Origin: Acidobacteriaceae bacterium
GTDB taxonomy: Bacteria > Acidobacteriota > Terriglobia > Terriglobales > Acidobacteriaceae
Direction: 5' to 3'
DNA length: 46,980 nucleotides
Assembly (NCBI GenBank): GCA_003139095.1
Contig: PLHW01000014.1
Coordinates: 41,687-88,666 of the forward strand
In this document: piece by piece, positions 1,745 to 35,443 of the stretch
Position numbering within the stretch: position 1 is the stretch's first letter
Layout of the letters: every line of letters begins with the position of its first letter
Position numbers and translations under genes: made by a program
Notes under the pieces: model-generated
Told to the model about the DNA's origin: nothing
What the model saw: the letters and a program-made list of their open reading frames with translations, nothing else
Database searches by the model: none

Positions 1745-1860
1745 GTACCCCCTACCCCCCTAGACCCGGTCTCTTAGAATCAAAGACTTAGCGGCTCTCT
1801 CCCGCCAGGTCTTTGAGGAATAGGGACTTGCGAGTAAAGTCTTTATAAATCAGAGACTTG
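1745..1860 (+). repeat. Composite hairpin repeat, copy 1 (C-tract, X, Y, Z)
   Basis: The element starts with a C-rich tract (GTACCCCCTACCCCCC, 1745-1760). Three imperfect palindromic units follow: X at 1768-1791, Y at 1805-1830 and Z at 1835-1860. Each unit has arms of the type GTCTTT and AAAGACTT around 6-9 bases. A 4-bp linker (CGAG) separates Y and Z. The same order and spacing recur at 1959-2074 and, inverted, at 34911-35029. No open frame of note covers it. The function is unknown. Confidence 0.75.
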
Positions 1861-1885
1861 CCTATGCTTCCCGGTGAATTCCCCT

Positions 1886-1912
1886 CCAAGGACTTTGAGA
1901 AATAAGCACTTA
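1886..1912 (+). repeat. Solo Y unit of the composite repeat
   Basis: A single Y-type unit (begins CCAAGGACTTTGAGAAATAA) lies between composite copies 1 and 2, without a following Z unit. Confidence 0.6.
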
Positions 1913-1958
1913 CCGGAAGAGCCAGCTACGTATCGTATCGAGGTTCCGGTCCCAGTGA

Positions 1959-2074
1959 ACCCCCACACCCAAGAATGGGTTGTCTTTAGAATCAGAGGCT
2001 TAGCGAAAGCTATCGCGCCAGGTCTTTGAGAAATAAGGACTTACAGGTAAAGTATTTATAAATCAGAGACTTAG
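1959..2074 (+). repeat. Composite hairpin repeat, copy 2
   Basis: A C-rich tract (1959-1970) is followed by X (1981-2003), Y (2018-2043), a 4-bp linker CAGG and Z (2048-2074). The unit order and distances match copy 1, while the joining sequence between X and Y differs. This is what is expected of a structured repeat rather than a recent duplication. Confidence 0.75.
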
Positions 2075-2097
2075 GAGCCGCGTCTTACTGGTTTCCT

Positions 2098-2123
2098 CCA
2101 GGTCTTTGAGGAATAAGGACTTG
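2098..2123 (+). repeat. Solo Y unit; 25 bp identical to the distal array
   Basis: A Y-type unit. Its 25 bases at 2098-2122 are identical, on the opposite strand, to 34943-34967 about 33 kb away. The rest of the spacer up to 2377 holds a small GC hairpin near 2206-2221 (CCCGCCTGGGCGGG) and nothing else I can identify. Confidence 0.7.
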
Positions 2124-2377
2124 CTGAAAGGCTTACGCGTGTGACGGCTGACGCCACAACCATATTCTCCGCAAAGTCCAATTTTCAAAGAAGTTAAGTG
2201 CCACCCCCGCCTGGGCGGGGTCGGGGCCCGGTTTCAGGTCCCCTGATGAAATTGTTGGCGATGTGATTCGCTAAGTCAATGAATTTTTGGGCGGCGCGAC
2301 AGGACGGGGACTTTGACTTCCTATCCTCACCACGACTCGCGGGTGCGCCACGTTAAAATCAAAAATGGAGGCAAGAG

Positions 2378-2728
2378 GTGGGCAAACCGACAATCGACCA
2401 AATTCTCGTCAGTCTGAACAATGAAGTAATGTTGGGGCGAGGGTATCTCACCATCGCTAATGGGTTGAGGGGTGCGGATGCTGTCGTTTTCAAGTCTTCC
2501 CCCACATTCTTTGGCTTAGCTTTCGAGGCGAGCTTGCAAATGTCACAGATGTACGCCGCGAAACTGTATGACAAAACAAGCAAGTCGGTCACGGTGAGGT
2601 CACTCCTTGATAGGGCTAAATTGGAGGCGGCAACTTTCAAGCATGGAACACCTGAACAGGTATCGTTAGCTGTGAAGGACGCCGAAAAGCGTATTGCTGG
2701 TCTTCAGGACATTCTCTTGTCAGTATAA
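2378..2728 (+). CDS. Hypothetical protein, possible HEPN-type helical domain
   Basis: This 116-residue protein is read from GTG 2378, with GGAG about 8 nt upstream as the ribosome site. The sequence looks wholly alpha-helical, without signal peptide or membrane segment. The central stretch (PTFFGLAFEASLQMSQMYAAKLYD) resembles small HEPN/AbiU2-like proteins, a superfamily that includes toxin RNases and abortive-infection proteins. I see no clear RxxxxH catalytic motif, so this assignment is tentative. Its composition is visibly less GC-rich than flanking core genes. It lies between the composite repeats and the VapBC cluster, which suggests an accessory patch. The neighbouring sequence downstream is degraded. 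Confidence 0.55.
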   Translation: MGKPTIDQILVSLNNEVMLGRGYLTIANGLRGADAVVFKSSPTFFGLAFEASLQMSQMYAAKLYDKTSKSVTVRSLLDRAKLEAATFKHGTPEQVSLAVKDAEKRIAGLQDILLSV

Positions 2729-2874
2729 AAACGGAGAAACGAGGCGATTGCCCATTTAGACCCAGGAACCGTGGTCGATCCGGCAGGTCTCGAAAGCCGT
2801 GCCAAGCTTACGTATCTTGCCAGAGACGCATAACCCCATTGAGAACCGCACTGGTCTCGTCGAACACTTTTTGA

Positions 2875-3039
2875 GGTCCGGAATCGTATGCATACCTGGA
2901 GTTTATCGGAAGTGATGATTACAAGACTGCCCTAGAACTGATTGCCGAAGCTAAACACGCGCAAGTCGATAAATGGGAAAAGGAATTCCCGAATGTACCC
3001 TGCGATTTCCCGCGACCGCAAACACCTCGCCGTCCTTAG
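2875..3039 (+). pseudogene. Possible gene remnant (open frame without start)
   Basis: The frame between a TGA at 2872 and a TAG at 3037 reads GPESYAYLEFIGSDDYKTAL and on to ...EKEFPNVPCDF. Its composition is protein-like (acidic and amphipathic) but there is no usable ATG and no known family is recognised. The remainder of the 2729-3085 spacer shows no other coding signal. It could be the 3' relic of a lost gene or chance. Confidence 0.25.
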
Positions 3040-3085
3040 GTGCAGCGCGAGTTGTAGAATCCACTTGGACCAAGGGGTGTGATTT

Positions 3086-3331
3086 ATGTTCGCGACAATC
3101 TTTGTGGCCGTATTGTCTGCCCTGATTGTGAATGACTGGCGCCGTAACATGCACAAAACGATCAAGGGCTGGACAAAGGATGCTGAAGCCCGCGCTGCGG
3201 AGCACAACAGGGATGCGAGTCTATACCGTGACCGAGGAAACGAAGAAATGACGAAGATGCACATTGAAAACTACATTCACTGGACCAAAAGTGCGAAGCG
3301 GTGCAGAATGTGGGATTTTTTGCTGCCGTAG
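3086..3331 (+). CDS. Small hypothetical membrane-anchored protein
   Basis: This 81-residue protein starts at ATG 3086, behind AAGGGGTG as ribosome site. Residues 1-16 (MFATIFVAVLSALIVN) form a single hydrophobic N-terminal segment, followed by a charged helical cytoplasmic-type region rich in K, R and E. No family is recognised. It stands alone on the plus strand, convergent with the DUF2442 gene. Confidence 0.45.
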   Translation: MFATIFVAVLSALIVNDWRRNMHKTIKGWTKDAEARAAEHNRDASLYRDRGNEEMTKMHIENYIHWTKSAKRCRMWDFLLP

Positions 3332-3433
3332 GCCTTCGCACACCAGGCGCCGACACAGCTTATCGTGCACTCTTCCAAGACCGGAACAGCGCGGCACTAT
3401 GGATCCTGTCCGCCCATGGAACTAGCGAGATGC

Positions 3434-3460
3434 CCCACACATTCTTTGCGAATGTGTGGG
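3434..3460. terminator. Strong hairpin between convergent genes
   Basis: A perfect 11-bp stem (CCCACACATTC / GAATGTGTGGG) with loop TTTGC lies between the ends of the plus-strand small membrane gene (3331) and the minus-strand DUF2442 gene (3479). There is no T-run on either side, so it may be a REP-type hairpin or a factor-assisted bidirectional terminator. Confidence 0.5.
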
Positions 3461-3478
3461 TTCATCGACTCCATCTCA

Positions 3479-3934
3479 CTAATCCCCCTCCGCAACTTCC
3501 CCCCGCCGGGGCCGACCGCCCTTTAGCCCGTTCGCCCGCGATGGCGCCTTCTTGGCCCGGCTTCGCGACTGCCCTCCGGCCTGCCCAAGACGTGCCGCCA
3601 TCCAGTTCTTTGATCCCATCAGCCCTTCCAGCAACCCCGGAATATAGAGGTCGGCGTCGATTTTCGGAAAGTGCACTCCAAAGCCTGACGGACTCAACTC
3701 AATTTCCTCGAGCCGCGCCGGCGTGGCATTTTCCAGTCCTTGTGCGTCGTGCGGCGAAAAACTCAATGTCAGCTTCGAACTCAGCTCAATCACGACCTTC
3801 CCGCTGGCCCGGTCATACCGCGCCGAGACAGCATGCGGAGAATTGGCATGCAGGCCCTTCGCGCGTTGAATGGCGCGATCAATCTCGACGTCGCTCGTTG
3901 AAATCCGATGCCGCCTGCTCCTATTCCTCCTCAT
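3479..3934 (-). CDS. DUF2442 domain-containing protein
   Basis: This 151-residue protein is on the minus strand; the start ATG at 3934 has GGGAGG 8 nt upstream. The central part (SARYDRASGKVVIELSSKLT, then FPKIDADLYIPGLLEGLMGS) fits the DUF2442 family, and the tail is the usual basic A/R/G-rich run (ANGLKGGRPRRGE). DUF2442 proteins are often found beside DUF4160 or toxin-antitoxin genes, but their activity is unknown. Here it is the third gene behind VapB and VapC, 55 bp after the VapC stop, and probably on the same transcript. The N-terminus is short and very basic (MRRNRSRRHRIS). Confidence 0.7.
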   Translation of the reverse strand: MRRNRSRRHRISTSDVEIDRAIQRAKGLHANSPHAVSARYDRASGKVVIELSSKLTLSFSPHDAQGLENATPARLEEIELSPSGFGVHFPKIDADLYIPGLLEGLMGSKNWMAARLGQAGGQSRSRAKKAPSRANGLKGGRPRRGEVAEGD

Positions 3935-3989
3935 GAATGGCCTCCCATGATGCTTCGAGTTCCTGAATATGCTCCGCCGCAGCCCTCAG

Positions 3990-4394
3990 TCACCTGCTCC
4001 AATCCTCCACCTTCAACCCCTTCACCCGCCGAAACACGTGATCATGCGTAACCAGCACCGCTTCTGCGGCGACCGCGTGCGCCGCGATCATCATGTCGAG
4101 GTTGCCCATTGGTTCTCCGTCTTTCTCCAGTGCCGCGCGGATGCGGGCATACTGCTGTGCGGCATCGGAGTTCCATGGCAGCACTTCCACTCGCAGAAGA
4201 AATTCCTCGACTACTTTTTTCAGAGACGCCGCCTCAGGACGGCGCGCAACACCGAAGCGCAATTCGGCCTCGGTGACGACCGAGATTCCGACTTCGGCCA
4301 TGGGCACTTTCAGCAGGCGCTCGCGCACGCGCGGAAAATTTCCTTTGATTACATAGCTGGCGGTGTTGGTATCGAGAAGATAGCGGACAGCCAC
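3990..4394 (-). CDS. vapC: Type II toxin VapC, PIN-domain RNase
   Basis: This 134-residue PIN-domain endoribonuclease, toxin of a VapBC pair, is expected to cut tRNA or rRNA in a Mg2+-dependent way. The acidic active-site residues are in place: D8 in YLLDTNTASY, E44 in TEAELRFG, D100 in GNLDMMIAAHA, and D118 in VTHD. It is the normal length for VapC. It directly abuts the antitoxin (VapB ends at 4395), so translation is probably coupled. Pairing and motifs make this a confident call; the RNA target cannot be read from sequence. Confidence 0.9.
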   Translation of the reverse strand: MAVRYLLDTNTASYVIKGNFPRVRERLLKVPMAEVGISVVTEAELRFGVARRPEAASLKKVVEEFLLRVEVLPWNSDAAQQYARIRAALEKDGEPMGNLDMMIAAHAVAAEAVLVTHDHVFRRVKGLKVEDWSR

Positions 4395-4637
4395 TTAGAA
4401 CAACTCGCGCTTTTGCGGGGGCCCGTCCTGGCGATCGGAGAGAAAGTCTTTCGGCACGTCGGCGGTCTTGAGAAACGCGAAAAAATCCTTCCAGGATTCG
4501 GGACGCCGCGACAAGATTACATCGCCCGTGGCCGGATCACGCCGGACAAAAACCTCCGAGCCTTCGAAGCGATATTCCGAGGGCAAGCGCACGGCCTGGC
4601 TTCGTCCATTGCGAAACAGCTTGGCGGTTCGCGGCAT
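4395..4637 (-). CDS. vapB: Type II antitoxin VapB, AbrB/SpoVT fold
   Basis: This 80-residue antitoxin has the N-terminal swapped-hairpin AbrB/MazE DNA-binding motif ([20 protein letters not shown]), and its C-terminal half wraps the toxin. I chose ATG 4637. A TTG at 4667 would extend the frame by ten residues but would place the operator palindrome inside the coding region. VapB-VapC dimers normally repress their own promoter, which fits the perfect inverted repeat directly before this start. Confidence 0.88.
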
Positions 4638-4674
4638 GGTATATATTGTGATATATACCTCCGCCAAATGTCAA
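4638..4674 (-). promoter_or_regulatory. vapBC promoter with palindromic operator
   Basis: On the minus strand, TTGACA (4674-4669) is followed after 18 bp by CACAAT (4650-4645), a plausible sigma-70 promoter. The -10 box lies inside a perfect inverted repeat at 4638-4659, with arms GGTATATAT and ATATATACC around TGTG (or its complement). Transcription would start about where the ATG begins, so the mRNA may be leaderless. VapBC binding here would block RNA polymerase. Confidence 0.7.
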
Positions 4675-4835
4675 GCTGGCGGTGAATCGACTGGGTTCCA
4701 TCGCAGTCTGCGGAGCACGTCCTTCGCGCGCGAAGCTGTACCTCATCGGCTGAAGAGGCTGCGAAAAAAGTCGGGCAGTCCGCGAAAAGGCTGCCTCAGG
4801 CGCTAAAGCGCGGACACAGTTTTCAACGACTTACT

Positions 4836-4856
4836 GGCACGAGTGGAACTCGTGCC
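4836..4856. repeat. REP-like hairpin
   Basis: A perfect 9-bp stem (GGCACGAGT / ACTCGTGCC) with a 3-nt loop is followed by CTTCC. The same stem-plus-CCCTTCC layout appears at 43004-43021. It lies between the vapBC cluster and the HtrA gene. Confidence 0.55.
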
Positions 4857-4910
4857 CTTCCCGGTTACGTCGGCAACGTGGCGCAACCGTTTCGAAATTC
4901 CTTCCGGCCC

Positions 4911-6056
4911 TCACACCTGGTCGCGGGTTTCGCCCAGAACTACCGCTACGTCTTGCCTTTGTTTGCCGCGGAAGATGGATACTTTGACCGTGTCGCCGGC
5001 GCGGTGGTTGTTCATTACCTGGGCCAGGTCCTGCTGACTCTCGACGGGCTTGCTGTCGATGGCGACGATGAGGTCGCCGCCGATCATGATGGGCATGTTG
5101 CCGAGGTAGGCGCGTTCGGTGCCGCCGCGCAGGCCGGCGCGGTCGGCGGCGCCTCCGGGGACGGCTTGCACGATGAGGAGGCCGGAATCGGCGGGGAGGC
5201 CGAGTTCGGTGGCGAGTTCGGGATCGATGGGAATGGTGCGGACGCCGAGTGCGGGACGGCGAACGCGGCCGAGGGTGACGAGATCGTTGAGAACGGCTTT
5301 GGCGGTGTTGATGGGGATGGCGAAGCCGATGCCGGAATTTTGTTCGGCGCCACCGGCAGCAGCAATCATCGTATTAATACCGATGACCTCGCCGTGCGAG
5401 TTAAGGAGCGGACCTCCGGAGTTGCCGGGGTTGATGGCGGCGTCGGTCTGGATGGCTTCTTCGATGACTACGCCGCTGGGTTCCTGCACCTGGCGAATGG
5501 AGCTGACGATGCCGCGCGTGAGGGTGCCGGAGAATCCGAAGGGATTGCCGATGGCATAGACATTTTGGCCGACTTGCAGATTGGTGGAGTCGCCGAGGGT
5601 CATAGGCTGAAGACTGGGCGCTTTGATCTGCACGACAGCGAGGTCATGGCCCCGGTCGGTGCCGACGATGGAGGCGCGGTACTTCTTGCGGTCGTGGAGG
5701 GTGACCCAAACGTCGTGCGCATTCTCGATGACGTGATAGTTGGTGAGGATGTGGCCTTCTTTATCGATGACGAAGCCGGAACCCTGGCCTTCCTGCGGGA
5801 CAGACCCGTAGAAGAAATCAAAGGTCATGACGCGCGAGGTAACGTTGACGACGGAGCCGATGTTGCGGCGGTAGACGGAGATGTTGTTCTGCTCCTCGGA
5901 GTCAAACTGCCCGCCACTGGCGGCTTCGGTGATTTCAAGATGCTGGGGGTGGGAGAGGAAACTGGCGGGATGAAAAGTGCCGGTGCGGTAGGTGGTGAAG
6001 TAGAAGAATCCGGCCGCGAGAATGATGGCGAAGATGGTGGGACGAAGAAATTTCAT
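4911..6056 (-). CDS. HtrA/DegP-type periplasmic serine protease with one PDZ domain
   Basis: This 381-residue trypsin-fold protease is for envelope protein quality control. ATG 6056 (MKFLRPTIFA) is chosen because GGAG lies just upstream and a hydrophobic signal anchor (residues 5-20) follows directly; longer in-frame readings only add low-complexity Ala/Pro sequence. The catalytic triad is H108 (LTNYHVIENA), D138 (DRGHDLAVV) and S213 (NPGNSGGPLL). One PDZ domain covers about residues 275-375. A single PDZ domain and a membrane anchor make it closer to DegS than to two-PDZ DegP. It lies 82 bp downstream of the hydantoinase gene on the same strand. Confidence 0.9.
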   Translation of the reverse strand: MKFLRPTIFAIILAAGFFYFTTYRTGTFHPASFLSHPQHLEITEAASGGQFDSEEQNNISVYRRNIGSVVNVTSRVMTFDFFYGSVPQEGQGSGFVIDKEGHILTNYHVIENAHDVWVTLHDRKKYRASIVGTDRGHDLAVVQIKAPSLQPMTLGDSTNLQVGQNVYAIGNPFGFSGTLTRGIVSSIRQVQEPSGVVIEEAIQTDAAINPGNSGGPLLNSHGEVIGINTMIAAAGGAEQNSGIGFAIPINTAKAVLNDLVTLGRVRRPALGVRTIPIDPELATELGLPADSGLLIVQAVPGGAADRAGLRGGTERAYLGNMPIMIGGDLIVAIDSKPVESQQDLAQVMNNHRAGDTVKVSIFRGKQRQDVAVVLGETRDQV

Positions 6057-6138
6057 CAGTGGCTCCGTAAAAGATGGCTCCGTGAAACAGGATAGTAAGA
6101 ATTTTAGCGAAAGATGTGGCTGATGGGCGATTCGGAGG

Positions 6139-7782
6139 TTAACGCGGGGACTTGCCCCAGGCGCCGCCGCCCGGGGACTCGATGCGGACGCGGTCACCGG
6201 CGCGGAGGCGGGCGCTGGTTTTGCCGGGGAGAATCTCTTCCGAGCCGTCCTGACGAATGATGGTGGTGCGGCCGGGAGCGCCGTCTTCGCCGCCGGCAAG
6301 GCCGTAGGGACCGCGGGTGCGGCGGTCGGCGAGCAGGGTGACTTGCGCGTCGGTGAGGACTTCGATCTCGCGGATGATGCCGTCTCCGCCATTGTAGAGA
6401 CCTTTGCCTCCGCTTCCTGCGCGCAGGGAATACTGGCGCAGGCGAACGGGATAGGCGTTCTCGAGGGCTTCCGCGGGGGTGTTGAGCGAATTGGTCATGT
6501 GGGTGTGGACGCCGGAGACGCCGTCTTTGGTGGGGCGCGCGCCCATTCCGCCGGCGATGGTTTCGTAATAGGCGAAGGGCTGATGCGTGCGTGAATCGAT
6601 CCCGCCGATGGTCAGGTTGTTCATGGTTCCGGCGGCAGCGGCGGGAATGCGATCGGGAATGGCCTGTGCCAGAGCGCGGAGGAGAACATCGACCATGCGT
6701 TGCGAGGTTTCGACATTGCCTCCGGCGACGGCGGCGGGAGGACGGGCATTGACGATGGTGCCAGCGGGCGCGATGACTCGGATGGGGCGCATGAGTCCGG
6801 CAGTGGCGGGAATGTCTTCGCGCAGCAGGCAGCGCAAGACGTAGAAGCAGGCGGAGTAGGTGATGGCTTCGACGGCGTTGACTGCGCCCTGGACTTGCGG
6901 GTCGCTGCCGGCGAAGTCGATGGTGACTGCGGGGTTCCTGCGCGGGCGCGCGATGTTGATGGTAACGGCGATGCGGACGGGTTTGGAGTCTACGCCGTCG
7001 TCATCGAGGAAGTCTTCCGCGTGGTATTTGCCCGGGGGAACGGTGGCGAGGAAAGCGCGCATAAGTTCCTCAGAGTAGTCGAGGAGACCGGATGCGGCTT
7101 GTTGCGTGCGGGCGAGACCATAGCGGGAGACGAGTTCGCGCAGACGTTGAGCGCCCGTTTGGCAGGCCGCGATCTGGGCGCCAAGATCGCCTTCGCGCTC
7201 CTCGGGCGTGCGGACGTTGTTGAGCAGCAGAGCGAGCACGTCGGGGACGATCTTCCCGGCACGCATGAGCTTGACGGGCGGAATGCGCAGGCCTTCCTGG
7301 TAGATTTCGCGGCACGGGCCCATCGAGCCAGGATAAGCGCCTCCAACGTCGGCGTGATGGGCGCGCGAGGCGACGTAGAAGTCGGGAGCAATCGCGCTCG
7401 TGGCGTTGGTCGAGGATGTTCTCTTGGCGCCGATAAATACGGACATCACCATGGTGATGTCGGGGAGATGTGTGCCGCCGCGGAACGGATCGTTGAGCAT
7501 GACAACGTCGCCGGGTTCGAAGCGGCCGCAGCCGATGCGGGATTGGTTGAACTCGCATTGCTCGATGGCGGCCGCGACTGACATGGGCATGGAGCCGAGA
7601 TGAACAGGCATGTGATCGCCCATGGCGATGACCTGGCCGCGCGCGTCGAAGACGGCGCAGGAGTAGTCGCGCCGCTCCTTAATATTGGGAGAGAAAGAAG
7701 TGCGGCGCAGCGCCGCGCCCATTTCTTCGGCGATGGAGTGGTAGAGGTTCTTGAATACTTCGAGTTCGATGGGATCGCGCAT
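6139..7782 (-). CDS. Hydantoinase B/oxoprolinase family protein
   Basis: This 547-residue protein is the size of HyuB, the ATP-dependent N-methylhydantoinase/5-oxoprolinase B-type subunit. Typical family sequences are seen at the N-terminus (RDPIELEVFKNLYHSIAEEM, then SPNIKERRDYSCAVFD) and in the middle (VMLNDPFRGGTHLPDITMV), and near the C-terminus there is the Gly-rich GAPGRTTI region. The A subunit (HyuA), which normally supplies the ATPase part, is not adjacent in this window, so the substrate (hydantoin, oxoproline or another amide ring) cannot be fixed. The gene is divergent from sppA across a spacer with two heptamer arrays. Confidence 0.88.
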   Translation of the reverse strand: MRDPIELEVFKNLYHSIAEEMGAALRRTSFSPNIKERRDYSCAVFDARGQVIAMGDHMPVHLGSMPMSVAAAIEQCEFNQSRIGCGRFEPGDVVMLNDPFRGGTHLPDITMVMSVFIGAKRTSSTNATSAIAPDFYVASRAHHADVGGAYPGSMGPCREIYQEGLRIPPVKLMRAGKIVPDVLALLLNNVRTPEEREGDLGAQIAACQTGAQRLRELVSRYGLARTQQAASGLLDYSEELMRAFLATVPPGKYHAEDFLDDDGVDSKPVRIAVTINIARPRRNPAVTIDFAGSDPQVQGAVNAVEAITYSACFYVLRCLLREDIPATAGLMRPIRVIAPAGTIVNARPPAAVAGGNVETSQRMVDVLLRALAQAIPDRIPAAAAGTMNNLTIGGIDSRTHQPFAYYETIAGGMGARPTKDGVSGVHTHMTNSLNTPAEALENAYPVRLRQYSLRAGSGGKGLYNGGDGIIREIEVLTDAQVTLLADRRTRGPYGLAGGEDGAPGRTTIIRQDGSEEILPGKTSARLRAGDRVRIESPGGGAWGKSPR

Positions 7783-7786
7783 GGGA

Positions 7787-7814
7787 AGTCAGAAGTCAGA
7801 GGGCAGAAGTCAGA
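7787..7814. repeat. Heptamer tandem array (4 x 7 bp)
   Basis: Units are AGTCAGA, AGTCAGA, GGGCAGA, AGTCAGA, starting 5 bp from the start codon of the minus-strand hydantoinase gene. They therefore cover the place where its ribosome site would be. A second array of complementary type follows at 7865. Confidence 0.8.
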
Positions 7815-7864
7815 AGTTAACCGCCTTTTGCGTCAGCATTGATGTCAGGACCGAGAGATTCTAA

Positions 7865-7899
7865 CTTCTGACCTCTCACCTCCGACCTCTGACCTCTCA
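7865..7899. repeat. Heptamer tandem array (5 x 7 bp), inverted relative to 7787
   Basis: Units are CTTCTGA, CCTCTCA, CCTCCGA, CCTCTGA, CCTCTCA. The reverse complement resembles the AGTCAGA-type array at 7787, so the two could pair over a spacer of about 50 bases in the divergent hydantoinase/sppA promoter region. Confidence 0.8.
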
Positions 7900-7931
7900 A
7901 CTCTCTCACCTTCGTGTAGACTCGTTCAATT

Positions 7932-8840
7932 ATGGCAGAAGGACGATCGCGGATCTGGATTTGGGTTTTGGTGGGATGCGGACTTTTTGTGCTGTTCGCT
8001 GCGGCGGTGATTACGCTGGTGTATTTCAGCTTCGGCGGGAGCGAGGAAGAGTCGTTCTCGGGATTCGGGCCGAAGATTGCGGTCGTGGAACTTGATGGCG
8101 TGCTGCTTTCTCCCAAGCAGGTGGTGAAACAGCTGAAGGACTTTGCGGATGACGATTCGGTTAAGGCGATCGTCATTCACGTGAATTCGCCGGGCGGAGG
8201 AGTGGCCGCGTCGGAGGAAATTTACCGCGAAGTGAAGCGGATTCGCGACGAGAAGAAGAAGCGGATTGTGGCGTCGATTGAAACGGTGGGAGCGAGCGGC
8301 GCATATTATGTAGCTTCGGCGACCAACAAAATTTATGCGGACAAAGGAAGCATCGTCGGATCGATTGGCGTGATTGCCGAGTGGGTGAACTACGGCGAGC
8401 TGCTGAAATGGGCGAAACTGGAGCCGATCACGATGAAGGCGGGCGAATTCAAAGATACGGGCAGCCCGACGCGCGAGATGACTCCGGCGGAGAAGCAGTA
8501 TTTCCAAGGCATGCTCGACAACATGCATGCGCAGTTTATTCAGGCGGTGGCGGACGGGCGGCATGAAAAAGTTGAAGAAATTCGTCCCCTGGCGGATGGA
8601 AAAGTCTGGACCGGCGAAGAAGCGCTGCCGCTGAAACTGATCGACCAGATTGCGGATTTTGAAGGCGCGGTGAAGGATACGGCGCGGGCCGTGAATATTT
8701 CTGGCGAGCCGTCGCTGGTCTATCCGCAAAAGGAGAAGCGATCGGTGTTGGACATGATGTTTGGCGACGTTTCAGATTACTTGCCGACGCGGGAGAAGAT
8801 GCTGGAGCAGGAAGTGAGTTTCTTCTATTTGTGGAAATAA
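7932..8840 (+). CDS. sppA: Signal peptide peptidase SppA
   Basis: This 302-residue membrane-anchored serine protease of family S49 (short, single-domain form) digests released signal peptides. One transmembrane segment lies at about residues 8-34. The Ser/Lys dyad is visible: S122 in VGASGAYYVASA and K174 in GEFKDTGSPTREM. The oxyanion region is IHVNSPGGGVAAS. The start ATG 7932 gives the expected short cytoplasmic N-terminus. Length and motifs agree with bacterial SppA of about 300 residues. Confidence 0.92.
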   Translation: MAEGRSRIWIWVLVGCGLFVLFAAAVITLVYFSFGGSEEESFSGFGPKIAVVELDGVLLSPKQVVKQLKDFADDDSVKAIVIHVNSPGGGVAASEEIYREVKRIRDEKKKRIVASIETVGASGAYYVASATNKIYADKGSIVGSIGVIAEWVNYGELLKWAKLEPITMKAGEFKDTGSPTREMTPAEKQYFQGMLDNMHAQFIQAVADGRHEKVEEIRPLADGKVWTGEEALPLKLIDQIADFEGAVKDTARAVNISGEPSLVYPQKEKRSVLDMMFGDVSDYLPTREKMLEQEVSFFYLWK

Positions 8841-9148
8841 CGCCGTCACTCGACGCGTGAAGCACAGAAGAATCTGGCAGGCGAGTCGTCAAGCTTGGTG
8901 CGGGCCGGGTTGGATACCGACCGTTCGAAATAGCCGCTGGATACGGGGGCACGCAGGCCCGGGATGGCTTGCGGCTTTTAATCCAGCAGCCTTCCCTCAC
9001 GCGAGAAAGGACGCCGCACCGATCCATGTACTATCGCCGATATTTGATGTTGGACTCCTTCACAATGACTTTGATTTACAAAAAGCGAACAAGATCAGTT
9101 TTGACATGAGAGCGACGGAGAAGCGATATAGAGTGAACGGGCAAGTCT
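8841..9148. other. Spacer without a supported gene
   Basis: This 308-bp spacer after sppA can be read as open frames, but none has protein-like composition or a ribosome site. I see no tRNA, terminator or strong repeat in it. Confidence 0.5.
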
Positions 9149-9520: not shown

Positions 9521-9541
9521 GCAGTAAACTTCGTTGCGCCC

Positions 9542-9715: not shown

Positions 9716-9768
9716 GACGCTGTGGAAATCTTATCGACCCACTACCGTGAAGTCAGATCGATTCGGCG

Positions 9769-9799
9769 GTGTCAGACACTTATGCCATAAGGACTGACC
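9769..9799. repeat. Nested inverted repeat in a gene-free spacer
   Basis: CTTATG-C-CATAAG (9779-9791) is flanked by GTCAG (9771-9775) and CTGAC (9794-9798), giving a nested palindrome. It could be an IS end, a protein binding site or an RNA hairpin. The rest of the 9716-10061 spacer contains no gene or RNA I can support. Confidence 0.45.
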
Positions 9800-25925: not shown

Positions 25926-25951
25926 GAGAGCAGTATCTCGCCGGCTCTATT

Positions 25952-26224: not shown

Positions 26225-26238
26225 GCGTAGAATAAGAC

Positions 26239-28434: not shown

Positions 28435-28479
28435 GCCGGCAAATCAGTCGTGTGGAGAAACGCGGCCTGCCGCGCCTCA

Positions 28480-28509
28480 AAGTCGCGAATGGCTCGAAGC
28501 TCGCGACTT
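28480..28509. terminator. Hairpin between convergent genes
   Basis: A perfect 9-bp stem (AAGTCGCGA / TCGCGACTT) with 12-nt loop lies between the propeller gene and the Ig-like lipoprotein gene, which converge here. There is no T-run, so terminator function is inferred from position. Confidence 0.5.
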
Positions 28510-28528
28510 ATGGCGCAAGACTCAAATC

Positions 28529-30778
28529 TCACTGCGCCAGATAGAAGACGGGACTCGCCGCGCCGCTTTTCTCCTCAATCATGAAAAACTGCGTCTCCGT
28601 CAGCCCGTAAATCACATAGGGCGCGGCCGCCGGCGCGGTGAGAGTAATGGTGCCATAGCCCTGGCCTTGCGCAGTGTACGCTCCGGTGACGGCGTGTCCG
28701 CCCGGATTCTGTGTCCCGTTCACATTGAACTTAGAATTACCCGGCGAGGTGAGCAGCAGGTTCATGGTGACGGGCGAAACGCTCGCAACGCTATTGCTGT
28801 TGGTCGCCACTGCAAACGTCCCGATCGTCGTCGTGCTGGTAAAGTCTCCCTGCGTCACTTTCGGGGCGTTCTGAGCGTACATGGCTCCGGTCATCACCGA
28901 CGCACTCGATTGATCGAGCACGTAACCGCGATTGGCTCCGCTGGCGTAAACGACGAATGGGATCGGCAGAATAGGCGATGGGGTTGCACTCGGATTGCCC
29001 AGCATGCAGAAGATGTAGCGTCCCGTGTTGTTGTTGGTCGCCACGTATGTATACGGGCTGGGGGATTGCGCCGAGGATGGGAAGAGTCCTACGGCCGTAA
29101 TTGCGCCCGCATTGTTCTGGTCGAACTGGCCTTGGACGCCGCCCGTGCCCGAACCTGGGCATGCGCCCGTAACGCCGCTGCCGCTGGAATTGCCATCCGG
29201 CGAGCCCAGCACCAGCGCAACGTTGTCGTTCGCGCCCGCAAGCACCGACACGGACGTGCCGCTCAAACCCGCATTGTTGTAGGTCGTCTTCGCATCCTGG
29301 AGCGTCAGCGTTCCCAGCACGGCCGGATTGCTGTCGGTGGAAATGGCGTACAGGTTGAGCGGATTATTCGAAGTCGCATTTCCGTTGGCCACGAAAAAGT
29401 CAAAGGCCATGGCGTGCGGCGAAGTCAACGTCAAATGCCAGAGGCCGCTGATGCTTCCATCCGCGGCATAGCTTCCCGCAACATTGCACGGCGCGGAAGT
29501 ACAAATTGCATTGCTGCTGTGTCCGTTGTCGTTCACATCGATCAGCCCGCCCGTAATCGTCCCGCCATTTGTGCCCGGAACCATGGGCAGCAGGCCCGCA
29601 TAGCCAATGCGGTTCCCGCTCGAATCCACGCCGGTAAAGCCAAACGCATATGTCGCGTTGGCCTGATTAAATTTCTTGGTCGACGTTGCTTCGGCAATGC
29701 CCTGGCCCTTGCCCGCATAAGGCGAGTCCGATTCGATCATCTGGATATCGCCGGGCCCGTCGAGAACAATTTGATATTGCACGGGGTAAACTCCCGCCCC
29801 GTTCGTTAGCGTCAGCGTGCCGGCGTTGTTGGAGTTATTTGGGTCGGTCGACGAAGGTGTGAACTGGCCGCCGGTAATCGTCACCCCCGTATTGGGGCCG
29901 CTCGCCGTCAACACGTCTTCCACGCCACCGGTGACTGTCGCGGTTCCGTCCGGGTTCGCACTGGCGGTAAAGGTACCCGCGACGCTGACTGGCTTGCTGC
30001 TGTTGTCAAAGCCGGAGAACTGGAATGCATAAGTCCCGTTCACCCGGGAATTGACCACCGTTACGGACGCAGCCGTACAAGTAGCGGACCCCTGTCCCGC
30101 CCCGCAACCGCCGGTGTCGATCGTCCCCACGGACGAAATCTGGACGCACCCGTTGCCGCATTCCTCGCTGAGAACGGGCGTGTACGTGGCTACCCCCGGG
30201 CCGGCTTGCCCAGGAGCGGGAGTAAAGCTCGCGCACGGCGCGCCGGCTGCCAAACATGTCCAGGTCTGCGTCTGCGGCGACCAGTCAGGCGTGACCGTGG
30301 AGGCAAACTGTTGCGTCAGGCCGAGACCTACGTACAGCGAATTGGTCACCAGGTTGTTCGGCGCAACGTAGGTCGTGTCGGGAACAACAGTCAATACCAG
30401 CGTCCCGGAGAGGCCGCTGTCGGCCTGCGACGTGGCTACAATGTTGACGGACGGGTCCGTCGGTACGGCGGCCGGCCCCATATAGGTCGCCGTTGTGCCT
30501 CCGGTCGCGGTGAAATATCCGCAAGGATTGGAAGACCCCGACCCCGTGCATGACGTGCCCGTGATGCTCCAGGTCACCGCCGACTGCGCTGCGTGTGAGA
30601 TGGTCGCCGTGATTGAAAGCGGGAGATTCAGTCCGGCCGAACTCGTGGGTTCCCCGGCCCCCGTCGCCGCCACCGTGATGGCCGCACAGTTACTAACACA
30701 GGGCCCACTGCCGCCCGTCGCGCATCCGCTGGCTAACGCCAGACTCATAAGTGCCGCTGCAAATAGTAGTTTTTTCAT
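28529..30778 (-). CDS. Large secreted lipoprotein with Ig-like/beta repeats
   Basis: This 749-residue protein is read from ATG 30778 (MKKLLFAAALMSLALASGC), which gives a textbook lipoprotein signal with lipobox LASG-C. The mature part is Gly/Thr/Asn/Ser-rich, with Ig-like domains (ITATISHAAQSAVTWSITGT) and repeats of the type GTYAFQFSGFDNSS and ATYAFGFTGVDSSGN, each followed by a GGVEDV or GGLIDVND stretch. Such repeats are common in acidobacterial surface proteins of unknown function. Confidence 0.78.
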   Translation of the reverse strand: MKKLLFAAALMSLALASGCATGGSGPCVSNCAAITVAATGAGEPTSSAGLNLPLSITATISHAAQSAVTWSITGTSCTGSGSSNPCGYFTATGGTTATYMGPAAVPTDPSVNIVATSQADSGLSGTLVLTVVPDTTYVAPNNLVTNSLYVGLGLTQQFASTVTPDWSPQTQTWTCLAAGAPCASFTPAPGQAGPGVATYTPVLSEECGNGCVQISSVGTIDTGGCGAGQGSATCTAASVTVVNSRVNGTYAFQFSGFDNSSKPVSVAGTFTASANPDGTATVTGGVEDVLTASGPNTGVTITGGQFTPSSTDPNNSNNAGTLTLTNGAGVYPVQYQIVLDGPGDIQMIESDSPYAGKGQGIAEATSTKKFNQANATYAFGFTGVDSSGNRIGYAGLLPMVPGTNGGTITGGLIDVNDNGHSSNAICTSAPCNVAGSYAADGSISGLWHLTLTSPHAMAFDFFVANGNATSNNPLNLYAISTDSNPAVLGTLTLQDAKTTYNNAGLSGTSVSVLAGANDNVALVLGSPDGNSSGSGVTGACPGSGTGGVQGQFDQNNAGAITAVGLFPSSAQSPSPYTYVATNNNTGRYIFCMLGNPSATPSPILPIPFVVYASGANRGYVLDQSSASVMTGAMYAQNAPKVTQGDFTSTTTIGTFAVATNSNSVASVSPVTMNLLLTSPGNSKFNVNGTQNPGGHAVTGAYTAQGQGYGTITLTAPAAAPYVIYGLTETQFFMIEEKSGAASPVFYLAQ

Positions 30779-31066
30779 GATCAGGTTCTCACTGGTGAAT
30801 CTGCCGCTCGCAGAGATAGGCCTGCTGTCGCCCGTAGAATCAACGAGGCAGAGTCTAAAGCCGACGCCAATCTGACCGAAGCCGGCCGGCAAAACTGCCC
30901 AACTATATTTTACAAATGTACCTGAATCCCTGGGCTTTGTCTGCGACCCCTCGGCCGCACTTCAAACCATGAACGGCGCCTCCGCAGCAGCTTGCTTCGG
31001 CACAAAACGGGGGCAGGAGCGGGAATGTTCAATCTCCCGCTGAAGTTACAGGCTATGGATCGCCGG

Positions 31067-31327
31067 CTACTGCGATTCGTCGATTCCCAGCCGCTTCGCC
31101 ATTTCGTCGTAAAGAAAGCCTTCGCCCGGGCGGTAGGGCTGCACCCATTCGCCGTCAATCACAAACTGTGGGACGGCGCGCATGCCGGTGCGCTGAACAA
31201 CTTCCTCCGCCGCGCCCGGCGTGGTTTCGATATTCACGTCCGTATAGGCGATTTTATAGCGCTCGAGAAAGCGCTTGGCCTCGCGGCAGTCAGGACACCA
31301 GGGGGCCGAATAAACGGTGAGTTGCAT
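31067..31327 (-). CDS. Glutaredoxin-like protein
   Basis: This 86-residue thioredoxin-fold protein has the CxxC site C11/C14 in YSAPWCPDCREAKRF and the cis-Pro motif RAVPQFVIDGEWVQPY. ATG 31327 gives the standard beta1 strand MQLTVYSAPW; upstream in-frame sequence lacks protein character. It likely acts as a cytoplasmic disulfide or mycothiol/glutathione-type reductant, but the real thiol partner is unknown. Confidence 0.85.
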   Translation of the reverse strand: MQLTVYSAPWCPDCREAKRFLERYKIAYTDVNIETTPGAAEEVVQRTGMRAVPQFVIDGEWVQPYRPGEGFLYDEMAKRLGIDESQ

Positions 31328-31413
31328 GGTGATCAATAGATGCGGCGGTCCGCTCGCAAGTCGCACGCGCGGGTCTTGCACAGCTCAAACGCGGTTCTAA
31401 CGCGTCCAAAAGT

Positions 31414-31773
31414 TTACACCCACTCCAACTCGCGCTGCGTCAGCTCATTTTCAACGTTGCCGGTGTTGAGCGTCGTCGCCGGCTCGAAGAGCACAATCCA
31501 GCACTCTTCGTCCGCCACCGGCCGGTGCTCCACTCCCCGCGGCACAACAATCAATTCGCCCTCTTCGATCCATTCGTGACGATCACGGAAATCCATGCGC
31601 AAGCGCCCCTTGACCACGAGAAACAGCTCATCTTCGTTCTCGTGATGGTGGAAGACAAACTCGCCATTGAGCTTTACGAACTTCACATGCTGTCCGTTGA
31701 GCTCGGCCGCGATGCGTGGGTGCTCAAACTCGGTGATCCGGGCAAATTTCTCGGCGATGTTGACCTTTGTCAT
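31414..31773 (-). CDS. Cupin-domain protein
   Basis: This 119-residue single-domain cupin starts at ATG 31773, with GGAG upstream. Cupin motif 1 is HHHENEDELFLVVKG and motif 2 is PRGVEHRPVADEE, giving the usual His/Glu metal ligands. Small cupins of this type bind metals or sugars and have various functions; no substrate can be assigned. Confidence 0.85.
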   Translation of the reverse strand: MTKVNIAEKFARITEFEHPRIAAELNGQHVKFVKLNGEFVFHHHENEDELFLVVKGRLRMDFRDRHEWIEEGELIVVPRGVEHRPVADEECWIVLFEPATTLNTGNVENELTQRELEWV

Positions 31774-31887
31774 GGTGGCTCCGGCAAGCAAAGCTCGCAC
31801 AGCTTTGGATATCGCAATCGTCCCGGCAGTCGCAAAAAAAGCCGCAGGCAAGCGCCCACGGCCTTTTGCTTCTTGCGACCCGCGGCG

Positions 31888-32940
31888 TTACAAGCCCGCG
31901 GCCCCCGTGCCCGAGTGCCCCGGCGGCAGCATCACGCGCACCCCGCGCTGCCCGTTGAGGTGTGTGGTTGTTGTCCAGTCGACTTCATCGGCGCCGATCA
32001 CGCCGCTGCCTCCGCTGGAAAGTTCATAGCTGATGCGGCCGTCCCGGTAGCCATAATTTCCGACCGCCAGAACCATACCCGTCTTCAGCACGAACACTGG
32101 CACGCCCGGAGACGTGCCGGTAAAGCGCGCGTCGCTCAGGCTTAGGTTTGCGTTGACTGGTGCGGCGTTGCCCTGCGGCACGTCAATCGTTTTATAGCTG
32201 GCATACCGAAGCTGCGGAACTTCCTCAAGCGTTGGCTCGCTCGCCGACGGCTTGAGGTGGCGCACCGCGAGATGCGGCCCCGAGTTGTCGCTCGCACCGT
32301 TATAGCCACTGTTGTATGCGTCCGTGCTGTACGACTCGTTGTACGGATGCCCGAAGAAATGCCAGTCCGGCCCGAACGTGGTGGCGACCTGCGGCATCTC
32401 GACATCATCCATCAGCCGCAACGTGAGCACGCTCTCGCCCTTCAGCGAAGGCCGCGGCCCGCGCGCCGGCAGCATGATGATCTTCCATGGCCAGAGCGGA
32501 GGAATCATCCACTCGACGACGTCGCGCTTGGCATGGCCCTTGCCGTCGATGTCGCCGTACTTATCGACCTTGTAACCGCGCGTCGAGATCACTTTGGCGT
32601 CCAGGGGCATGTCGCCGTTGGGCATTCCGATCCGGTCGAACTGAATCTTCATGTAGCCCTTGCCCCAGAAGTGGCCGGGATCCTGCGCCGCTTCGAGGTG
32701 TCCGACCAGGTAACTTCCGCGCGGAAACGCCTGGTGGCCGAACTCGGTCAGCGAGTGCAGATGACAGAGCACGGGATCGCCGATGGCAACCGTGGCCGTA
32801 GAAAAGTTGGGTTCACTGAGTGTGCACTGCAGAAGAGTTCCGGCGGGCAGGACCATTTCCCGCGCGCTGGCACTCAAGGTGAGGGTTAAGCAGAGGAAGG
32901 ACACTACAGCAATCGCACAGAACGTGCTGCTGGCTTTCAT
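31888..32940 (-). CDS. Secreted hypothetical protein
   Basis: This 350-residue protein has a signal peptide (AIAVVSFLCLTLTLSASA, residues 9-26). The early mature part (LPAGTLLQCTLSEPNFSTAT) resembles the beta-rich opening of several acidobacterial exported proteins, and the rest has many aromatic and Gly residues. The C-terminus reads LNGQRGVRVMLPPGHSG. No catalytic motif or family is recognised. Confidence 0.65.
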   Translation of the reverse strand: MKASSTFCAIAVVSFLCLTLTLSASAREMVLPAGTLLQCTLSEPNFSTATVAIGDPVLCHLHSLTEFGHQAFPRGSYLVGHLEAAQDPGHFWGKGYMKIQFDRIGMPNGDMPLDAKVISTRGYKVDKYGDIDGKGHAKRDVVEWMIPPLWPWKIIMLPARGPRPSLKGESVLTLRLMDDVEMPQVATTFGPDWHFFGHPYNESYSTDAYNSGYNGASDNSGPHLAVRHLKPSASEPTLEEVPQLRYASYKTIDVPQGNAAPVNANLSLSDARFTGTSPGVPVFVLKTGMVLAVGNYGYRDGRISYELSSGGSGVIGADEVDWTTTTHLNGQRGVRVMLPPGHSGTGAAGL

Positions 32941-33202
32941 CGAATCACCTCGGTCTCACGCCCCAAAATGCGTGGTACGAGTTGCCAAAGCTACCGTTGA
33001 GCCAGCCCCGATGGTTGAAAGTAAATCATAAGAGGCGGCCCCGGGTCAATCGCCAAGCCGTGCGGGTTCCGTGCGGATTCCGTGCCCCATGTCCCGGAGG
33101 GACGATCCAGTTTCGTAACCGCCTCTTTAGGGCCCGGGGAAAAGTTCGAGGTGCCAGCGAAAGTCCACGAGGGACGACCGAAAAGTCGGTGTTGCTTTGA
33201 CG

Positions 33203-33226
33203 GGCGCGGCTTTAGCTAGCCGCGCC
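33203..33226. repeat. REP-like hairpin in a 560-bp spacer
   Basis: A perfect 8-bp stem (GGCGCGGC / GCCGCGCC) with 8-nt loop. The spacer 32941-33504 also contains weaker GC-rich inverted repeats near 33249 and 33296-33330, so it looks like a cluster of decayed REP-type elements. No gene is supported in it. Confidence 0.45.
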
Positions 33227-33504
33227 GCAAGGCGTCCTTCATAACAGGGGCAGCCCCTGAGGGACCTAATCAGAGTTTCCTTAGCAAGAACCGTGTGGCG
33301 CGGACACTCCTGTCCCCGCGCGTCCAGAAGCGAGAGTCCTCGCCCGCATAGTGGCCACCAACAAGGTGGAGGCCCGCGCGCCCAGCCCGTGCACGCAACG
33401 ATTCAGCAGCCAGCGCGCAACCGGCGGTTCGATCATGGATCGTGAGTGTAATGGGGATTTTTCGCCAAGTAATGAATCCAACTCAGGTACTGCAGGCGGC
33501 CTTT

Positions 33505-34458
33505 CTACTTTGTGCCGATTGCGGCAACATTCGAGACCACTGCACCTGTCCAAAAGGGCATGAGAGCCACCCCCTTGAGATCGAGGTTGGCTTCAGCTTG
33601 GCTGACGCCTCTTCCCGTGAACTGAGCTTGAAGTGTATATTGCTTCGTGGGATCAGGCTTGAAATCCTCAACTTGCCCGGAGGCGTACCAAGGCCGACTC
33701 CTAAAAACGTCTAGTGGGAGCATGAAGGATGCGCCGCTCGGCAAAGGGACGATAAGGGCGTCGATCCGGCCGCCAATCAGTCCCACCGGTTCGGCTAATC
33801 TAGCGTGGTGCTCTACGCCGTGTGCGTCCTTTAACAACAAGGTAATAGCCGTTGGGTACTGCCGCATACCGTTCGCCTCCATCGTCCCTAGATTAAGGAC
33901 CGCATCCTTCGCGCCAATATTCCTCACTTCGAGCGTCCCGCGACCCGGTGAAAGGCAAAGTGCAATTCCAGTGATGGGAGCGCCGCATTTGCCGACGTCG
34001 TTGAGAGTATCTCTCACTACGCCTCCAAACCATCCAACGATCTTGACGAAGCTGTTGTAGATCTTGGCGAAGAGCTGTTGATTGTGTTCACCCCACAATT
34101 CTGGTTCGGGGGTGAGGTCCAGGATGACGAGAGGTTCCATAACTCTCCGAAAACTCTCATAGGCATTGAATAGATCAACAACCTGAGGAGCGGAGAGCCG
34201 ACGATAGTGTGTGATCTCCGCTTTGGCTTCTTGAACGCGAGTTCCCAGATCCTCGAGCCCTATCTTGCAAGCATCACGCAACTCTACTTTCGTTGCGTCC
34301 TCGCAACGGATGCCGGGTGCAAGTTGCTGATAGTGATCCAGCGCCTTGCTGGCCGCTTTCAGCAGAGAATCGATGTCTGGCTGCGGCTGAACTTGACCAT
34401 AGATGGGGATGGCAAGTGCGATTAGCAACAATGCGGGAAACCGCTGGCGTAGTTTCAT
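33505..34458 (-). CDS. Secreted hypothetical protein
   Basis: This 317-residue protein is read from ATG 34458 (MKLRQRFPALLLIALAIPIY), behind GAGGAAC; this gives a signal peptide ending near YGQ. The frame stays open upstream to 34704, but a second hydrophobic segment before a signal peptide would be unusual. The mature part has a helical first half (LLKAASKALDHYQQLAPG) and a beta-rich second half (GTLEVRNIGAKDAVLNLGTM). No family is recognised; composition suggests accessory DNA next to the repeat spacer. Confidence 0.55.
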   Translation of the reverse strand: MKLRQRFPALLLIALAIPIYGQVQPQPDIDSLLKAASKALDHYQQLAPGIRCEDATKVELRDACKIGLEDLGTRVQEAKAEITHYRRLSAPQVVDLFNAYESFRRVMEPLVILDLTPEPELWGEHNQQLFAKIYNSFVKIVGWFGGVVRDTLNDVGKCGAPITGIALCLSPGRGTLEVRNIGAKDAVLNLGTMEANGMRQYPTAITLLLKDAHGVEHHARLAEPVGLIGGRIDALIVPLPSGASFMLPLDVFRSRPWYASGQVEDFKPDPTKQYTLQAQFTGRGVSQAEANLDLKGVALMPFWTGAVVSNVAAIGTK

Positions 34459-34812
34459 GTTCCTCGTTCCGAAAGCTGAGATCATTATGCTCGAATCGTG
34501 CTCGACTTCGGGATCAATCCCAAAAGCCGTGTAGCCGAATAATTCGAGGTCCGTGATAATTGTCGCAACCAGGCCATTACACTCACGAGCGCGAGTATGA
34601 ACAAAGAAACCGACCAAAGGTACCGCGAGATACAGTAAGCACGAACCACCCCATGACCAAATGTCCTTGACACCCAAACTTATAATGTAAGTAGAAGGTT
34701 CCATCAGAGCGCGCCCCAGGGCCGTCGCCTTCCGTTGTAGAAGGTTTTTTGTTTCTTGCTTCGAAAATGCCTCCCAGGAGGCAAGGGCTGGAATCGGGTC
34801 TTTGACATTTAT

Positions 34813-34882
34813 GTGAGCCGTGGACCATGCAGGTTCGACATTTCATGGCCCGGCGTGAGCCGTGGATCATGCGGGTTTGCCA
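34813..34882. repeat. Direct repeat with 42-bp period
   Basis: A 28-bp segment at 34813-34840 recurs at 34855-34882 with five or so differences (both begin GTGAGCCGTGGA). It lies at the start of a 1.5-kb gene-free spacer (34459-35975). Confidence 0.6.
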
Positions 34883-34910
34883 AGTCGAGCCGCTTCTCGA
34901 TTTCTTGACG

Positions 34911-35029
34911 CTAAGTCTTTGGTTTATAAAGACTTTAGCTCTAAGTCCTTATTCCTCAAAGACCTGGAGCCCCGCCCCCTCTAAGTCTTTGGCTTCATTA
35001 GACCAGGGGAGGGGGGATACCCAGTCCCC
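34911..35029 (-). repeat. Composite hairpin repeat, copy 3 (inverted)
   Basis: Read on the minus strand: C-rich tract (35029-35005), X (35004-34981), Y (34967-34942), a 4-bp linker GAGC and Z (34937-34911). Order and spacing match copies 1 and 2 near 2 kb. Twenty-five bases of Y (34943-34967) are identical to 2098-2122 on the other strand. Confidence 0.75.
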
Positions 35030-35122
35030 GACCATTGCCACAAAGCCTCTCCTTTCGCTGTTCCTTCGTGAACCTTCGGTGCGCCCGTCGTTGTCTCCTG
35101 CTAAATGCGGGTTCTGGAGGAG

Positions 35123-35179
35123 ATTAAGTCTTTTATTTTTAATACTTTAGATTTAAGTATTGTAGAATGAATACTTTGC
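35123..35179 (-). repeat. Composite hairpin repeat, partial copy 4 (Y-Z)
   Basis: On the minus strand Y (35179-35154) is followed by a 4-bp linker AATC and Z (35149-35123). Y has changed in both arms (AAGTATT and AATACTT), so pairing is kept. No X or C-tract is present. Confidence 0.65.
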
Positions 35180-35230
35180 GAGGAGCGAGCCGGAAAGCCT
35201 TATTTAATCGCAGTTAACTCCCATGCGCTC

Positions 35231-35270
35231 AAGACTTTACCTCTAAGTCCCGATTTCTCAAGACTTTGGC
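35231..35270 (-). repeat. Composite hairpin repeat, partial copy 5 (Y plus part of Z)
   Basis: On the minus strand Y (35270-35244), a 4-bp linker GAGG and the first arm of Z (TAAAGTCTT). It is the fifth instance of the constant 4-bp Y-Z linker. Confidence 0.6.
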
Positions 35271-35336
35271 AGGTAAAAAATCGCAAAATTTCCGAAAACC
35301 GCACCTAACTCCAACTCAGAAAAAGAGTTGTAAGAA

Positions 35337-35443
35337 CTAAGTTCAAGCCTATATTTTTGAATACTTTGCCATCCAACTTACTCTAAGTTCATGATTCCAT
35401 TAGACAGTGACGGAGGCAGGGGGAGGGGGGGAGGGGGGTACCC
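35337..35443 (-). repeat. Composite hairpin repeat, partial copy 6 (G/C tract, X, Y)
   Basis: On the minus strand GGGTACC plus a long C-rich tract (35443-35413), X (35405-35382) and a diverged Y (35370-35337). The tract has several runs of four or more G on the plus strand and could fold as a G-quadruplex. Confidence 0.6.

What the first reader, a model, noticed from the sequence alone, without database searches (positions are those of the whole stretch)
1745..35443. Composite intergenic element: C-rich tract, then hairpin units X-Y-Z, at two distant sites
At 1745-2123 and, inverted, at 34911-35443 the same ordered element appears: a C-rich tract, unit X (GTCT...AGACTTAG), unit Y (CCAGGTCTTTGAGGAATAAG type) and unit Z (TAAAGTCTTTATAAAT type). 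Three copies are complete and three partial. Unit order is kept and joining sequences vary. One 25-bp stretch (2098-2122) is identical to 34943-34967 on the other strand. I know no described repeat with this layout. It could be a mobile RNA-structured element, a nucleoid or replication-related site, or a transcriptional insulator.
Basis: seen in the sequence. Interest (0 to 1): 0.75.

Follow-up and report, generated by a model that had tools for sequence, protein, structure and literature searches.

The report
Mobile-looking hairpin repeat in Acidobacteriota genomes
Two spots in this soil-bacterium sequence carry the same undescribed, many-part stretch of non-coding DNA, which turns out to be one of dozens of copies scattered between genes here and in related species, often at different places, as expected of a small jumping or copied DNA element.

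Summary

The layout is richer than reported: [palindrome W in some copies], C-tract, X, 13-15 nt, Y, 3 nt, Z, and often a second Y-like unit. X/Y and Z/Y' are inverted arms of two hairpins. Site 1 holds two tandem copies.

Copies are intergenic (0 of 117 sites overlap a gene call), without orientation preference. Many lie at different places in different species: no copy at the corresponding place in 10 congener regions read for each window site, and one G003 site is empty in a relative with 91-94% identical flanks.

Best reading: a BOX-like, non-autonomous, hairpin-bearing mobile repeat, mover unknown. It fails REP-tag, RAYT-linkage and TIR tests. Conserved RNA structure is not shown; terminator, insulator or promoter roles lack support. 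New variant of a known kind.

The parts
1748..1760 (+). C-tract of copy 1 (CCCCCTACCCCCC)
   Evidence: aligned with 34 cores, C-rich in all
1768..1791 (+). unit X of copy 1, 5' arm of hairpin I
1806..1830 (+). unit Y of copy 1, 3' arm of hairpin I
   Evidence: folds with X
1834..1860 (+). [not shown]
   Evidence: 3 nt after Y, as in all 37 cores of that call
1886..1913 (+). extra Y-like unit (Y') of copy 1, 3' arm of hairpin II
1960..1970 (+). C-tract of copy 2
1980..2003 (+). unit X of copy 2
2019..2043 (+). unit Y of copy 2
2047..2073 (+). [not shown]
2098..2123 (+). extra Y-like unit (Y') of copy 2; 2096-2122 is the exact inverted match of 34943-34969
1669..2321 (+). whole site-1 repeat shared with three other loci (subfamily A)
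   Evidence: 80% identity to L021 over 663 columns, 79% to L022 over 615; L023 shorter (78% over 318)
35006..35016 (-). C-tract of the site-2 core
34981..35004 (-). unit X of site 2
34942..34966 (-). unit Y of site 2
34912..34938 (-). [not shown]
34661..35036 (-). site-2 core with its subfamily-B tail
   Evidence: 87% to L030 over 365 columns; shorter matches to L036, L037, L038
35101..35443 (-). diverged longer relative with its own C-tract (35438-35419), preceding the core
   Evidence: nine further places in the genome at 78-86%

Best explanation
A family of small, non-autonomous, intergenic mobile repeats of one family of Acidobacteriota, comparable in kind to pneumococcal BOX elements. The basic element (about 110 bp core, about 210-221 bp with tail in three young copies) is a C-rich tract followed by two imperfect hairpins: arms X and Y, then arms Z and a second Y-like unit. 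Some copies start with a 16-bp palindrome (W) about 22 nt before the C-tract. New copies arise at other intergenic places, so related species carry many of them at different sites, and head-to-tail arrays form locally. Most likely mechanism (inferred): an enzyme acting in trans recognises the hairpins, probably as folded single-stranded DNA, and copies or moves the element. Shown: family, layout, intergenic placement, differences of position between species. Not shown: the enzyme, the movement itself, exact ends, target duplication, any benefit to the host.
For: Copy number and spread. Common layout with fixed Y-Z spacing. Intergenic: 0 of 36 own sites and 0 of 117 sites in all overlap a gene call. 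Different places in related species: only 27 cross-genome pairs among 117 sites share a flanking gene (a lower bound, since at most the best 18 hits per relative were fetched). Window site 1: none of 10 congener regions has the element at that place beside the clp-like gene (4 have one elsewhere in the region, one of them weak); site 2: 0 of 10 have one upstream of the aminotransferase (10 of 23 congeners read for each). Empty sites: G009 has 74 bp where G003 has 200 bp, flanks 94% and 91% identical; G012 has 28 bp versus 441, flanks 67% and 77%; G008 has 186 bp versus 446, flanks 80% and 73%. Recent burst in G003: seven further copies at 92-96% identity to one query copy. Lineage-specific amplification: nearest neighbour at another locus of the same genome for 18 of 35 G000, 11 of 20 G008, 9 of 20 G003, 9 of 18 G009 and 10 of 12 G007 copies.
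Against: No transposase is linked: none of three Y1_Tnp loci holds the element within about 1.5 kb (one chance-level X hit, E 0.61). No TIR above chance in three young copies. No target duplication: at the best empty site the G003 contig has NN inside the element, and the relatives' gaps hold other sequence, so flanks cannot simply be joined. Some sites are orthologous across species (14 pairs compared, copies 66-94% identical), so part of the spread is old. For G017 (1 of 6), G021 (2 of 4), G020 (0 of 2) and G018 (0 of 1) the nearest copy is mostly or half of the time in another genome. Position differences could partly be losses. A further search for an empty site (L115) gave none that could be used. 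Gene calls come from a rough home-made finder.
Confidence: 0.68

Rival explanations
1. A REP/BIME-type repeat moved by a RAYT (Y1 transposase): tagged single hairpins recognised as single-stranded DNA.
For: Hairpin units of 24-27 nt, intergenic, clustered; units often end in TTAG or TTAC; the genome has three Y1_Tnp genes.
Against: GTAG or CGTC tag near an end in 1 of 118 X, 1 of 118 Y and 0 of 118 Z units. No copy at the three Y1_Tnp loci, at least two of which carry different palindromic repeats of their own.
Confidence: 0.12
2. A structured RNA (small RNA or leader) with two hairpins after a C-rich stretch.
For: The X-Y stem is predicted in 4 of 5 plus-strand folds (not in L030); z-scores -1.2 to -3.2 in six folds, one of them the minus strand. 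Cognate outer arms X/Y and Z/Y' pair better than swapped arms in 27 of 40 copies and worse in 6 (26 of 39 without one copy that has a truncated last unit), but many of these are one related subfamily. X self-hairpin: 16 double-change cells against 7.2 in shuffles.
Against: X5'-Y3' and the inner X-Y stem show no covariation above shuffles or slid controls; top covarying columns mostly do not line up as helices. Antisense placement to both neighbours (37) is commoner than sense (23) of 104 gaps. Rfam has no match.
Confidence: 0.12
3. A regulatory site: terminator, insulator, or a ready-made promoter/operator (W palindrome, C-tract, promoter-like Y-Z pair) spread across genes.
Against: No orientation preference (64 vs 51, p 0.26; 44 vs 62, p 0.10). 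Gaps: 60 co-directional, 23 convergent, 21 divergent of 104, against 89, 24, 41 of 154 gaps without the element. The window copies lack W. The promoter scan reports consensus matches only.
Confidence: 0.08

Closest known systems
BOX elements of Streptococcus pneumoniae (PMC3049150, passages read)
   Same: Composite of several modules in fixed order, variable number of inner modules, intergenic, hairpin-forming, found in clusters with other repeats, thought non-autonomous and mobile.
   Different: Other phylum and a different module set: C-tract plus two related hairpins, sometimes a leading palindrome. The passages describe BOX and RUP as having TIR; none found here in three young copies.
REP / BIME palindromes with RAYT (PMC3733652 passages; PMC8266576 abstract and outline)
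   Same: Short imperfect palindromes, largely extragenic, in pairs and clusters, many copies.
   Different: No GTAG/CGTC tag, no linkage to the three Y1_Tnp genes, multi-unit core of fixed order.
MITEs (definition in a passage of PMC3049150)
   Same: Short, non-coding, hairpin-rich; X, Y and Z are AT-rich relative to the host (AT 62%, 60%, 76% against 41% in the window).
   Different: No TIR above chance in three young copies, no target duplication found.
Correia / NIME mosaic elements of Neisseria (one passage)
   Same: Composite intergenic repeats.
   Different: Correia elements are bounded by 26-bp inverted repeats according to the passage; none found here.

Membership tests
REP (GTAG/CGTC superfamilies) | GTAG or CGTC tetranucleotide at one end of the palindrome | tested here: not met
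   within 8 nt of an end in 1 of 118 X, 1 of 118 Y, 0 of 118 Z; definition from PMC3733652 passages
REP (GTAG/CGTC superfamilies) | GTAG type linked to a Y1 (RAYT) transposase gene | tested here: not met
   0 of 3 Y1_Tnp loci hold the element; loci reach about 1.5 kb each side
MITE | terminal inverted repeats | tested here: not met
   three young copies, ends chosen by me; local score reached by 112, 132 and 247 of 500 shuffles
MITE | target site duplication | tested here: inconclusive
   empty sites found but junctions not resolvable (NN gap, other sequence in the gap)
BOX | modular composite with variable inner modules, intergenic | tested here: met
BOX | boxA/boxB/boxC sequence | not tested
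   BOX sequences were not compared; only passages of PMC3049150 were read
Rfam structured RNA | match at the gathering score | tested here: not met
   none on the element; the window has one tRNA elsewhere; BjrC68 only at 17.4 of 39 bits (1644-1701), outside the core
Conserved RNA structure | compensatory changes beyond shuffled and slid controls | tested here: inconclusive
Intrinsic terminator / insulator | enrichment at gene ends in one orientation | tested here: not met

The most novel reading that the evidence does not exclude
An undescribed class of bacterial mobile repeat that moves as a single-stranded two-hairpin unit by an enzyme other than a RAYT. By carrying an operator-like palindrome (W), a C-tract that could form a G-quadruplex on the other strand in some copies, and a promoter-like Y-Z pair, it would rewire the edges of the genes beside which it lands.
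Probability: 0.12. Interest if true: 0.75.

Novelty: new variant of a known kind. Interest (0 to 1): 0.45.

Why it matters
Small interspersed repeats are well studied in a few lineages; the searches made here (60, 61, 63, 64) listed no such family for the Acidobacteriota, a major soil phylum. A clade-wide family with dozens of copies, a recent burst and site differences between congeners gives a natural system for asking how repeats without terminal inverted repeats or a linked transposase spread. It also warns that intergenic conservation in these genomes can come from repeats and not from regulation.

Tried and rejected

Rows dropped before counts: alignment A1 used 34 of the 37 cores; three copies that follow another array unit (L044, L049, L054) were left out. 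The 118-copy set is those of 211 model hits with fewer than 12 gaps. The W test used 115 of 118 copies (three had no run of four C in the slice). Relatives' sites are at most the best 18 per genome, so shared-site counts are lower bounds; one search used stricter filters and scored 18 candidates per genome. In one search one of the 40 copies had a truncated last unit and was counted as better; without it the figure is 26 of 39.

Full report
Observation. Site 1 holds two head-to-tail copies and site 2 one good core on the other strand, with a diverged longer block outside it. The exact inverted match is 27 bp. The site-1 query gives 45 matches in the genome (5.53 Mb, 75 contigs) at E <= 0.001. 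A sequence-only model of 34 aligned cores (A1; R1) gives 93 matches at E <= 0.01 (150 of 969 candidates scored). The 34 best are the building set; some of the other 59 are reverse-strand echoes of the palindromes.

Layout. A second Y-like unit follows Z in a good part of the copies: 40 distinct copies from all genomes had one within 130 nt (131 full matches scanned, duplicates and copies with N dropped). X and Y are roughly inverted copies of each other, as are Z and the second Y, so the core reads as two related hairpins in a row. The X-Y stem is predicted in 4 of 5 plus-strand folds; L030 folds otherwise. In 118 full copies the longest C run is 4 or more in 115. A palindrome W (GTTTACCATTTAGTAA type, up to 5 mismatches) precedes the C-tract in 16 of 115 copies, at 21-23 nt in 13 of the 16, against 0.8% of shuffles. 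An exact W search of the own genome found 15 matches at 13 distinct places, control 0. Ten of the 13 lie beside a copy listed, nine of these on the C-tract side; three have none. The window copies lack W. In G007, five copies have a different palindrome in that place (TTGGCAAAGATTGCCAA).

Subfamilies. Site 1 belongs to a 600-700 bp subfamily with L021 and L022, and L023 in part; site 2 to another with L030, L036, L037 and L038. A young subfamily in G003 and G009 spans 210, 212 and 221 bp in the three copies measured, from GCGCAGA(G/T)CC to GAAGAGC or GGAAAGAGC.

Distribution. 16 of 61 genomes matched by DNA and 49 of 200 by model, own included in both. Of the 49, 22 are among the 24 of the genus and 27 in other genera of the same family; all matching rows are in that family. 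Some of the 27 rest on one or few weak matches. Phages, plasmids and viral contigs: none (one search was an exact pattern only).

Placement. 0 of 36 own sites and 0 of 117 sites in all genomes overlap a gene called by my rough finder (edges of 30-40 bp allowed). The gaps are 60 co-directional, 23 convergent and 21 divergent of 104, against 89, 24 and 41 of 154 gaps of 150-1500 bp without the element. The C-tract side faces gene starts 64 times and gene ends 51 times (p 0.26); the Z side 44 and 62 (p 0.10). The C-tract end lies near genes (medians 148.5 bp from starts, 76 bp from ends) and the Z end further (293.5 and 241 bp); part of this comes from the unmodelled tail.

Mobility. Among 117 sites, 27 cross-genome pairs share a flanking gene; the copies of 14 such pairs are 66-94% identical. 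For window site 1, ten congener regions around the clp-like gene were read. None has the element at the window's place; L166, L170 and L172 have a clear and L169 a weak copy (E 0.0015) elsewhere in the region, near the homologue of the gene at 31888-32940. For site 2, 0 of 10 regions have it upstream of the aminotransferase; that the far flank is syntenic there was not shown. G003 versus G009 at L092: flanks 94% and 91% identical, 200 bp versus 74 bp, but the G003 contig has NN within the element and the G009 gap holds other sequence, so no duplication can be read. Two more absences, at lower flank identity: L096 in G012 and L196 in G008, the latter gap filled with other sequence. Nearest neighbours within the same genome: 18 of 35 (G000), 11 of 20 (G008), 9 of 20 (G003), 9 of 18 (G009), 10 of 12 (G007), 2 of 4 (G021), 1 of 6 (G017), 0 of 2 (G020), 0 of 1 (G018).

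Mechanism. The own genome's three Y1_Tnp genes lack the element nearby; L184 and L186 show palindromic repeats of their own. Units lack the REP tag, and three young copies show no TIR above chance. What remains best supported is a BOX-like non-autonomous repeat; the mover is unknown. That hairpins in single-stranded DNA are what is recognised is inference from the anatomy. Regulation of neighbours is possible, given the closeness of the C-tract end to genes, W, and the promoter-like Y-Z pair (consensus matches only), but nothing here shows it.

Literature. PMC3049150 and PMC3733652 were read as passages; PMC8266576 as abstract and outline. Searches listed no paper whose title or start of abstract describes such a family in Acidobacteriota; the library holds open-licence papers only, so this is not proof of novelty.

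Noticed in passing
window 35542-35679: Block upstream of the aminotransferase gene, conserved (about 76-85% where the whole block aligns) in many congeners and ending in a terminator-like hairpin on the minus strand; looks like an undescribed small RNA or leader. No Rfam match at the gathering score.
   Followed up: partly
window 35082-35443: A second, longer repeat family: nine other places in the own genome match it at 78-86% identity; it precedes the core at this site and in L030 and L036.
   Followed up: partly
window 2296-2353: Short stretch matching several loci of congeners (G017, G007, G002 and others) at about 88-93% identity; another dispersed motif.
   Followed up: no
window 1634-1666, 7782-7899, 35793-35825, 46946-46977: TCAGTTGTCAGTT / GAAGTCAGAAGTCAG type short repeats, in inverted pairs across the window.
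   Followed up: no
L091-L097, L115, L120, L193, L196: Intergenic regions look like mosaics of several further repeat modules (GGCTGCGGAAAAACTC type, GCGGACA..TGTCCGC type) abutting the element.
   Followed up: no
window 31888-33030 and 13-1635: In G001, G007 and other congeners the homologues of these genes lie a few kb apart and in inverted relative orientation; in the window they are 30 kb apart, so a rearrangement has one end near site 2.
   Followed up: partly
window 33505-34704: 399-aa ORF beside site 2 with no Pfam match and one related locus found in genome contigs.
   Followed up: partly
window 2378-2728: ORF after site 1 weakly resembling HEPN_AbiU2 (E 6e-5, below the curated cut-off).
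   Followed up: no
L184, L186: Y1_Tnp loci of the same genome with their own palindromic repeats (CCCACCCTTGCG and CCCCACTCAAGCC..GGCTTGAATGGGGC types).
   Followed up: no
L103, L121, L141, L142, L143: In G007 the C-tract of these five copies is preceded by another palindrome, TTGGCAAAGATTGCCAA type, in place of W.
   Followed up: no
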